From an uncultured Eisenbergiella sp. (GTDB lineage: Bacteria > Bacillota > Clostridia > Lachnospirales > Lachnospiraceae): 64,000 bases of DNA. The notes below the pieces were generated by a model that searched no databases, was not told where the DNA came from, and saw nothing but the letters and a program-made list of their open reading frames with translations. The position numbers and the translations under genes were made by a program. The stretch is from the NCBI GenBank assembly GCA_947627215.1, contig CANQVD010000003.1, forward strand, positions 62,001-126,000, in the 5' to 3' direction. Below, piece by piece: positions 32,191 through 35,100 of this stretch (within the stretch, counting starts at the first letter, position 1; every line of letters starts with the position of its first letter).

Positions 32191-35100
32191 GATCAAGCGC
32201 CTCCTTTTCCCTTTCCGCACGCTCGCGCATACGGTATTCTGCCTGTACATCGTTCATTGTCATGTACGGCGGGTCCGCCTCCGGCAGCACAGCCTTCCTC
32301 CTGGTCTTCCTGGTGCTGGACAGGGGCGGCAACTGCGCCGACATGTCCGCCTCCGTAAAGATGAGGGGACGTTTCTCTTTTTTCCCCGCCTGCGTACCCA
32401 CCGTGGGTACGCTGACGGACGCCTTCTTCTCTTCCGCAGCCTTCGTACCCTCCGAGGGTACGCTGACGGGATTGTTCTGCACAGGTGTTTTCTGGTTCTT
32501 CTTGATCGCAGTCGTCTGCGCGCTCACGTCCGTCCGTACGGGTGTGCCGGATGCCTGTTCGGCCTTCGTACCCTCTGAGGGTACGCCCGGATTCTTCTCC
32601 CGGACGGGCGCCCCTGACGCAGGCGCGGCTACCAGAGAGGGGCTGTCTGTCTCTGTCTGAACAGATGGAGTCCTCTGCACTGAACCAGCGGGTACGCCCG
32701 GCGCATTCCTCTCTTGTATGGCCGGTTCCTTTGCCTGTGCAACCATCGCGGGTACGCATCCGGTTATGGCGGCCGCCTTCTCTGTCAGGGGCGCCGTATC
32801 TGCATCATGCGCGGATTCCTCATCTGTCAGAGGCGCCGTTCCTGCCGTACTGCCTGCCTCGGTCACGTTCCCCGCAGGGACGCACTCTTCAGGTGCTTTC
32901 GCCTCGGGCCCGCTCACCGAAGGTGTGTCATCCGCAGGAGTGCTCACAGAAGGTGCGACGGGTGCCTCATCCGGCTTTCCCTCATGCCCCGCTGCCGCCC
33001 TCGTCTCATCTTTCTTCTTGTCATTGGTCTCTTTCTTTCCCAGCCCGCCGGAGAGGCCGCGGAATCGGATCCCCTGTTTCTTCGGACGCGAAGCGGGCGT
33101 CTCGTCCATCTTCCTGCTCTCATCTGCCGGTGCACGGTATACATCCACCGGCCCGGCGTAGGGTGCTTCATTTAAAGGTGCGGCGCCGGGCCCTGTCTGC
33201 TCAGATGTGGAAGCCTTACTGACAGGGACCGCATCCGTCAGGACAGGCGTGAGCTTCTCTTTAACTGCATCGGCATCCTGGACGGCATCTGCCTTTGTCT
33301 CCTGCGCGGCCTTCGCATTCGTGGGCGCTTCTGCAGTCACCCTGCTGTACCTCTTCGGCGCCTGCTTCACGGGCCCCGTCTGAGACCCGTAGACGCCGCC
33401 CTGAGCCCCGAAAGGCGTTTTTGCGGCTGCCTGGCCGTATAAGGGGCTGTAGGCGCCCGCACGGGCCTCCTGGACGCTCTCCGTCTCGTCAGACCACAGG
33501 ATCGGCTCCGCGGCGTCCGCAGATGCGCCGTCCGGATACCCGCCTCCGTCAGGACCGTTCGGATTCCCGCCTCCGTCAGGTGACGGATGATAGTCCGTGA
33601 TGTACTCCCGCACGATCTCCTTGTAATATGGATGCCGGTCCATGCCGAACTTGTGGAGCTTGATGTAGTTGTACCCCGAGACGAACACCAGGAGCTCGTT
33701 GGGGGCCAGCCGCCTCACCTCGTCCGGCGTCAGGGCGTAGCGCTTGTTCGCGCTCTCCGACCTGGCCGTGTAGGGATGCATCTTCAGCAGGTCCGCACGC
33801 CCCTCCACATACCGGTCGCTCTTGGACACCACCGTCATTTCTCCGCTCTTGACAGAGAAGAACTCCTCCGTCACCGGGTCGTTGGTCTTTAAGACGATCT
33901 GCGTCATGCACTGTGAAAGGATCGTCTGCCACTCGTCGTTCAACGGGTACATCTTCTTTAGCTGGTTGATGTCCTGCAGGGCGATCATGATGTCGATGTT
34001 GTAGGAACGCACCACGCTCAGCTTGTCCGTCATGTCCGGGATGATGCCGCAGTTGGCAAACTCGTCCAGGATGAAATTCACCTTGACCGGAAGCCGCTCA
34101 CCTTGCTTAGAGTACTTCGCCTTCGCCAGCTTGATCAGCGCCTGGAACTGGATGGAGAAGTACAAGGCCACCAGGAATTTTAAGGTGTTCTTCTCATCTA
34201 CGCTCATGCCGATGTAGTAGATGCACTTCTCCTCGCCGGGGGCCGTCAGCGATACCGTGTCGATGTCCGTGACGTTCCGTACGTTCTTCGCCGCGAAGAT
34301 CTGGAGCTTTAACATCAGGCCGCTGATGGAGCTCTGGCGCACCGTGTCGGATGAGTCCATGAACGTACGGAACGAACGCTTTGCCGGATGCGAGATCGGC
34401 AGACGCCCGATCCGAGCCAGCACGCCGTTGATCCCCCAATCCGTCAGCTTCATGTACACGTTCCCCAGCGTCTTCTCCTCCTCCGGGATGTCCGGGGAGA
34501 GCACCAGGTATAAGATCATCGACTGCAGCAGTGAGAACGCGCAGTCCTCGAAGAACTTCTCGACCTTCTCTCCCTCATTTCTGGTGTTGTCGATGATCGT
34601 ACGGGAGAAGCTGATCACGTCCTTTACGACCTCGTCCTCATCCTGCGGGTTCTTGATCGCGTATTTTAAGAAGTTGATCGAGTCAGAGTTCTTCAGCTGG
34701 TCAGGGTTCAAATTGATGACCTTCACGTTGTACCCGTGCTCCCTGGCAAGGTGCGCCGTGTACTCGTACAGCTCCCCCTTCGGGGACGTGGTGATCACGC
34801 TCTCCCCACGCCGGATCGCCTGCATGATCGTCGGCAGGATCACCGAGTAGGTCTTGCCTGACTGCGACGAGCCGATGATCGCGATGTGCGGGTTCAGCGC
34901 CGCGTAGCTGTCCACCCCGATGTACCTGTCGTGCAGGTGCTTCATGCAGTACAGCTGATCCTCATTTGTCCTGTCCGCTCCAAGGATCGTCCAGAGGTTG
35001 TCCTTGATCGGGGCCCGGTAGAACACCGCCTTGCGCTCCGCCTCCGTCATCTCCCGCGCCGTCCCATACGTCCCCTTCTCGCTGATCTCGTAGTTGCCGT

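What the first reader, a model, noticed from the sequence alone, without database searches (positions are those of the whole stretch)
32392..32585. The same 19-bp centromere-like palindrome occurs inside the virD4-like coupling gene
CGTACCCTC(C/T)GAGGGTACG is present at 32444-32462 and 32567-32585, with a variant GCGTACCCACCGTGGGTACGC at 32392-32412, all in the disordered C-terminal coding region. One 19-mer (CGTACCCTCTGAGGGTACG) is identical to units of the 50.9-51.4 kb array, 18 kb away. Read in frame it encodes VPSEGT on either strand, so it can be tolerated as coding DNA. Inference: the partition protein may nucleate on the conjugation gene, linking segregation and transfer, or the palindrome spreads as a tiny mobile repeat.
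Basis: partly seen in the sequence, partly recalled or inferred. Interest (0 to 1): 0.85.

Follow-up and report, generated by a model that had tools for sequence, protein, structure and literature searches.

The report
Plasmid segregation sites inside conjugation gene
A large plasmid of a gut bacterium carries its own DNA-segregation tag (a 19-letter palindrome) not only next to its segregation genes but also, three times, inside the gene for the protein that feeds DNA into the mating channel, hinting that inheritance and transfer may share one control protein.

Summary
In detail: three copies of the 19-bp palindrome (CGTACCCWCNGWGGGTACG) lie in frame in the disordered tail of virD4, and seven lie 18 kb away in a 78-bp-period array upstream of parA. 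Genome-wide, 15 of 16 copies are on this 164-kb contig; none of 396 other family genomes has an exact one.

Best reading: it is the parS-like site of the plasmid's own ParB, and the virD4 copies are secondary loading sites. Other plasmids with a related ParA-ParB pair carry their own odd palindrome with the same C-N-G centre: GGGCCACNGTGGCCC upstream of parA in Butyrivibrio pNP243 and an orthologous 337-kb replicon, GTTCACNGTGAAC in a 36-kb contig and pCY186. ParA and ParB are the only proteins shared by all six replicons compared. The 36-kb contig also has a copy in the C-terminal coding region of its virD4; pCY186 has one just upstream of its virD4. Given the peptides, each virD4 site needs codons expected at about 1-3 in 10,000.

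Binding, and any effect on transfer, are untested. Comparable known systems are RK2 KorB/OB and NAH7 ParB/parS. The mobile-repeat reading is not supported.

The parts
32393..32411 (.). parS-like palindrome V1 (CGTACCCACCGTGGGTACG), virD4 codons 1011-1016, peptide VPTVGT
32444..32462 (.). parS-like palindrome V2 (CGTACCCTCCGAGGGTACG), virD4 codons 994-999, peptide VPSEGT; reverse complement of array units 1 and 7
32567..32585 (.). parS-like palindrome V3 (CGTACCCTCTGAGGGTACG), virD4 codons 953-958, peptide VPSEGT; identical to array units 2-5
32168..35440 (-). virD4-like T4SS coupling protein, 1090 aa, disordered Pro/Ala/Lys/Glu-rich tail after about residue 610
   Evidence: T4SS-DNA_transf 2.4e-54
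30415..32190 (-). next gene of the transfer operon: NlpC/P60 + cell-wall hydrolase with signal peptide; start at 32190 inferred by eye, overlapping the virD4 stop (ORF caller starts at 32250)
   Evidence: Hydrolase_2 2.9e-19, NLPC_P60 4.2e-15; sequence
50927..51413 (.). array of seven palindromes, period 78 bp, between the divergent parM/parR-like and parA/parB genes; presumed main centromere
51651..52466 (+). parA (AAA_31 Walker ATPase); ORF 51579-52466, ATG at 51651 or 51654 more likely
   Evidence: AAA_31 1.1e-33
52463..53668 (+). parB, 401 aa: N-terminal GERRYLA/CTP-switch-like domain, HTH domain (161-258), disordered linker, C-terminal helices
49795..50760 (-). actin-like ParM homologue, divergent from parA across the array
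   Evidence: MreB-like_C 5e-6; tblastn 33% to pCY186 ParM
49311..49763 (-). small ParR-like gene by position only (no Pfam hit)

Best explanation
The 19-bp palindrome is the DNA recognition site (parS-like) of the ParB encoded at 52463-53668. The seven-copy array upstream of parA is the main centromere. The other eight copies on the contig, three of them inside virD4, are secondary ParB loading sites written into intergenic DNA or, in virD4, into a part of the protein that tolerates almost any sequence. Inferred mechanism: ParB dimers load at these sites with CTP, close into clamps and slide outward, so the 3' part of virD4 and the overlapping cell-wall-hydrolase gene become coated; this adds to plasmid condensation/partition and, as with KorB on RK2, may tune transcription of this part of the transfer operon. 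Shown: the sites, their distribution, the codon constraint, the ParB fold, the recurrence in related replicons. Inferred: ParB binding, clamp loading. Least certain: an effect on transfer (about 0.25-0.35 on its own).
For: Array next to parAB. 15 of 16 genomic copies on contig C3, P about 2e-20, or 6.5e-7 counting clusters; 0 of 396 other family genomes with an exact copy. The arms are nearly invariant in all 16 copies while the centre base varies freely, and C9/G11 beside it never vary, as expected for a dimer site on duplex DNA. Related parA-parB replicons carry their own odd palindromes: GGGCCACNGTGGCCC just upstream of parA in pNP243 and G624:C2, GTTCACNGTGAAC x8 on G106:C18 only, with at most 2 in any other family genome, and x8 on pCY186. 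ParA and ParB are the only C3 proteins with homologues in all five other replicons; pNP243 and G106:C18 have no ParM/ParR match. ParB profile matches Noc/ParB/KorB structures (3e-24; folds). The chromosomal parS TGTTTCACGTGAAACA is separate and sits beside the chromosomal parB. Given the peptide, the virD4 codons have p = 1.1e-4, 1.6e-4 and 3.1e-4. G106 virD4 carries its palindrome in frame at codon 632 of 704.
Against: No binding data. In pCY186 the exact palindromes are not upstream of parA, where AT-rich iterons lie instead. No equivalent palindrome family was clear in G143:C12, although it has the same double par locus. pNP243 and G624:C2 are orthologous, not independent. One copy sits on another, apparently chromosomal contig and is conserved in an Eisenbergiella contig, which the ParB of a plasmid does not explain. 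A second ParB_N protein on C3 (C3:5663-7351) could be the binder. V1 and V2 share flanks (27 of 50), so part of the virD4 cluster may be a local duplication.
Confidence: 0.72

Rival explanations
1. The sites are ParB-bound, but the virD4 copies have no role in transfer: they are simply extra parS copies that sit where coding constraint is weak, like the many intragenic parS sites of bacterial chromosomes. (This agrees with the best explanation on what the site is and differs only on the effect.)
For: The virD4 tail is unconserved and disordered; other dispersed copies on C3 have no obvious tie to transfer genes; G106 also has a copy inside parB and in other ORFs.
Against: Three copies packed into 193 bp; copies at or in virD4 in C3, G106 and pCY186, joint chance about 0.005, post hoc.
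Confidence: 0.4
2. The array is the parC of the type II system and the palindromes are bound by the ParR-like protein encoded at 49311-49763.
For: The array lies immediately upstream of parM as well as parA; ParM is present on pCY186 too.
Against: pNP243 and G106:C18 have the palindromes without ParM/ParR matches, and ParA/ParB are the only proteins common to all.
Confidence: 0.08
3. The palindromes are operators of a separate plasmid-encoded global regulator, not a partition site.
For: In pCY186 six of eight copies lie within 150 bp upstream of a gene start, P = 3e-4.
Against: No regulator is shared by all palindrome-bearing replicons; arrays/clusters sit at parA in C3, pNP243 and G624:C2; a ParB acting like KorB would give the same promoter bias.
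Confidence: 0.08
4. A short palindromic mobile repeat spreading through the plasmid, tolerated in frame.
For: V1 and V2 share flanks beyond chance (27 of 50; null maximum 25).
Against: No shared flanks between other loci; one copy outside C3; none in 396 relatives; no body beyond the dyad.
Confidence: 0.03
5. RNA hairpins in the virD4 mRNA (attenuator or processing signal).
For: The 19-mer can form an 8-bp stem when transcribed (read from the sequence).
Against: The bases of the would-be loop beside the free centre base (C9, G11) are invariant in 16 copies and the same C-N-G centre recurs in other replicons; most other copies are intergenic.
Confidence: 0.03

Closest known systems
KorB/OB of IncP-1 plasmid RK2 (PMC11790492)
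   Same: ParB-family CTP clamp loading at palindromes placed apart from the par locus and controlling replication and conjugation genes; the C3 ParB model matches KorB (8qa9).
   Different: OB is a 16-bp site positioned relative to promoters and works with KorA; the C3 sites have a different sequence, include a 7-unit array and lie inside the virD4 coding region; no KorA partner was sought here.
ParB/parS of NAH7 (PMC12421886)
   Same: Type I ParB binding parS copies near conjugation genes; reported to activate transfer gene transcription.
   Different: Proteobacterial, unrelated site; there the site is upstream of the transfer genes, here inside the coupling gene. No expression data here.
Chromosomal ParABS (parS TGTTNCACGTGAAACA) and Noc
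   Same: ParB_N + HTH architecture, dispersed palindromes, many within genes (own knowledge).
   Different: Plasmid site is an odd palindrome of unrelated arms; the host chromosome has its own parS beside its parB.
pB171-type double par locus (own knowledge)
   Same: Divergent ParM-type and ParA-type systems around a central repeat region.
   Different: ParA here is paired with a ParB_N-type ParB; sites are dispersed along the plasmid.
Butyrivibrio pCY186 (NC_014390) and pNP243 (NZ_CP146964)
   Same: Related ParA-ParB and dispersed or parA-proximal odd palindromes with C-N-G centre; pCY186 also shares virD4, VirB4-like and ParM genes.
   Different: Different palindrome arms; pNP243 showed no virD4 or ParM homologue of C3.

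Membership tests
ParABS (type I) partition system | Walker-type ParA ATPase | tested here: met
   AAA_31 1.1e-33
ParABS (type I) partition system | ParB with CTP-switch N-domain and HTH DNA-binding domain | tested here: met
   ParB_N 3e-13; GERRYLA and N..R motifs; profile matches Noc/ParB/KorB; model fold
ParABS (type I) partition system | Repeated palindromic site adjacent to parAB and specific to that replicon | tested here: met
ParABS (type I) partition system | ParB binds the site | not testable with these tools
   Only comparative support
ParABS (type I) partition system | Site and proteins confer stable inheritance | not testable with these tools
   needs a stability assay
KorB-like global regulator | Sites dispersed over the plasmid away from parAB | tested here: met
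   loci at 13.2, 24.2, 48.6-48.9, 94.4-94.6 kb of C3
KorB-like global regulator | Sites placed at promoters of replication/transfer genes | tested here: inconclusive
   pCY186 6 of 8 within 150 bp upstream of a gene (P 3e-4); C3 clusters 1 of 5
KorB-like global regulator | KorA-type partner protein | not tested
   no search was made
Type II ParMRC centromere (parC) | Site co-occurs with ParM/ParR | tested here: not met
   Palindromes present without ParM/ParR matches in pNP243 and G106:C18
Mobile palindromic repeat (REP/RPE-like) | Copies spread over the genome with a common body beyond the dyad | tested here: not met

The most novel reading that the evidence does not exclude
In conjugative plasmids of this gut lineage, ParB loading sites are kept inside or at the coupling-protein gene by selection, as in-frame coding DNA, so that the segregation protein sits on the transfer operon and sets the balance between vertical inheritance and conjugation.
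Probability: 0.25. Interest if true: 0.75.

Novelty: new variant of a known kind. Interest (0 to 1): 0.5.

Why it matters
It gives a candidate centromere sequence, with a cognate ParB, for a class of large conjugative plasmids in Lachnospiraceae whose maintenance is little studied, and a simple genetic test (synonymous recoding of three sites in one gene) of whether a partition protein acts directly on a conjugation gene.

Tried and rejected
Viral-contig scans by pattern and by ParB failed on every try because the machine gave no answer. Subdoligranulum plasmid OY725878 has a weak ParB homologue (29%) but no enriched palindrome. G703, G542 and G611 ParB loci gave no clear palindrome family. 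Phage records gave only distant ParB matches. The genome-contig scan found nine stretches: the one Lachnospiraceae stretch, Eisenbergiella L050, is the chromosomal copy; the others are single copies in unrelated phyla and were set aside unread as probable chance. C3 shows no terminal overlap, so circularity was not shown. Mobile repeat, RNA hairpin and ParR readings were weighed and put low for the reasons under the rivals.

Full report
Observation. Seven further copies form a 78-bp-period array at 50927-51413. Shuffled windows give 0.01 matches on average against 10 found. Two of the three virD4 copies are identical to array units (V3 to units 2-5; V2, as the reverse complement, to units 1 and 7).

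Where the copies are. The window is bases 62001-126000 of contig C3 (164,354 bp) of a 4.04-Mb, 108-contig genome. Searching that genome for GTACCC-N5-GGGTAC with one mismatch gives 15 copies on C3 and one on C2. On C3 they fall at 13.2, 24.2 (two), 48.6 and 48.9, 94.4-94.6 (the three in virD4) and 112.9-113.4 kb (the array). P for 15 of 16 on C3 is about 2e-20, or 6.5e-7 if clusters are counted once. None of 396 other family genomes has an exact copy of the 19-mer consensus. The non-virD4 dispersed copies lie between genes as far as the sequence shows, although a mechanical ORF covers the 48.6/48.9 pair. C3 carries T4SS genes and two partition systems and shares virD4, VirB4-like and ParM genes with Butyrivibrio plasmid pCY186, so I take it for a large conjugative plasmid; circularity was not shown. 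The host is a Lachnospiraceae near Eisenbergiella, inferred from a stretch of C2 that is 88% identical to an Eisenbergiella contig.

What binds it. The array separates a divergent actin-like parM/parR-like pair from parA/parB. ParB has the ParB_N domain, the GERRYLA motif, an HTH domain and C-terminal helices; its profile and predicted fold match Noc, ParB and KorB (mean pLDDT 74, so the model supports the domain order more than details). To choose between ParB and ParR I looked at other replicons with related ParA-ParB. pNP243 has three GGGCCACNGTGGCCC-type sites within about 260 bp upstream of parA and one elsewhere; the orthologous G624:C2 has three exact copies within 1.7 kb upstream of parA and one near-exact copy elsewhere. 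G106:C18 has eight GTTCACNGTGAAC sites, all of that genome's copies, while no other of the family genomes searched has more than two. pCY186 has eight GTTCACNGTGAAC sites, dispersed. pNP243 and G106:C18 give no ParM or ParR match. Of all C3 ORFs only ParA and ParB have homologues in all five other replicons compared. This makes ParB the best candidate. The chromosome's own parS, TGTTTCACGTGAAACA, occurs once as an exact copy, 1.1 kb from the chromosomal parB, so the plasmid site is a separate specificity.

The site itself. Across 16 copies the arms are nearly invariant, the centre base is free, and C9 and G11 beside it never change; positions 8 and 12 are T..A, A..T or, once, T..T. The free centre between fixed C and G argues for a protein dimer on duplex DNA rather than an RNA hairpin. 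The same C-N-G centre recurs in the other replicons with different arms.

Why inside virD4. VirD4 homologues align only to about residue 610 of 1090, so the tail is free to carry sequence. Given the peptides, the codon choices that make the palindromes have probabilities 1.1e-4, 1.6e-4 and 3.1e-4 under the contig's codon usage, with rare GTA (16%) and GGT (12%) codons. So the DNA, not the peptide, appears to be the constrained layer. V1 and V2 share flanks above chance (27 of 50), which suggests local duplication; other pairs do not. On G106:C18 a copy of that element's own, different palindrome lies in the C-terminal coding region of its virD4 (codon 632 of 704, in frame, VHGEQ). On pCY186 a copy starts 31 bp before the small ORF that precedes virD4. 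The chance that all three replicons have a site within 350 bp of virD4 is about 0.005, computed after seeing the data, so I count it as a hint only.

Mechanism. From established knowledge of ParB clamps and of KorB on RK2 (PMC11790492; KorB reaches promoters up to 1.5 kb away), ParB loaded at V1-V3 would slide over the virD4 3' part and the cell-wall hydrolase gene, whose likely start (32190) overlaps the virD4 stop. Extra condensation or partition capacity is the minimum consequence; modulation of the transfer operon is the further inference. NAH7 ParB, which activates conjugation genes through parS copies (PMC12421886), shows that the idea has precedent, with the opposite sign from KorB.

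Limits. No binding data; one unexplained, conserved copy on an apparently chromosomal contig (expected by chance 0.004-0.005); a second ParB_N protein on C3 not excluded; pCY186 has iterons rather than this palindrome upstream of parA; one genome per species is available, so conservation of the virD4 sites within the species could not be tested; viral-contig scans failed.

Noticed in passing
2824-7221: A diversity-generating retroelement: reverse transcriptase 4487-5656 (-), Rfam RT-2 RNA 5707-5925 (-), a 135-nt repeat at 5935-6069 matching 2836-2970 and 6937-7071, the latter two in DUF6273 genes (301 aa, and the end of a 2098-aa SpaA-repeat surface protein)..
   Followed up: partly
13853-15238: RRXRR + HNH protein of 461 aa, IscB-like by domain content.
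   Followed up: no
L031:13910-15560 (C3): CRISPR-like array of about 27 palindromic repeats (CCCGCTC..GAGCGGG, period about 66 bp) some 700 bp from the 13.2-kb parS-like site; no cas gene was seen in the few neighbours scanned.
   Followed up: partly
L036:9967-9985 (C2:164467-164485) and L050:7058-7076: The only copy outside C3: conserved palindrome CGTACCCACCGTGGGTACG in an otherwise 88% alignable, apparently chromosomal stretch of this genome and an Eisenbergiella MAG, with immediate flanks diverged. Unexplained.
   Followed up: partly
L031:5663-7351 (C3): A second ParB_N protein (562 aa) on the same contig, with unknown site.
   Followed up: no
32690-32697 and 32750-32757: Two single half-sites GGGTACGC in the virD4 tail, in the same codon phase (GTA CCC = VP) as the palindromes; decayed or half sites, unproven.
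   Followed up: no
49311-53668: Two partition systems of different type (actin-like and ParA-type) arranged divergently around one array; the same gene order is at G143:C12:13655-17278.
   Followed up: partly
L060:32117-33122 (pCY186 182117-183122): About 1 kb of AT-rich iterons (TTTACATAA type) upstream of pCY186 parA in place of the odd palindrome.
   Followed up: no
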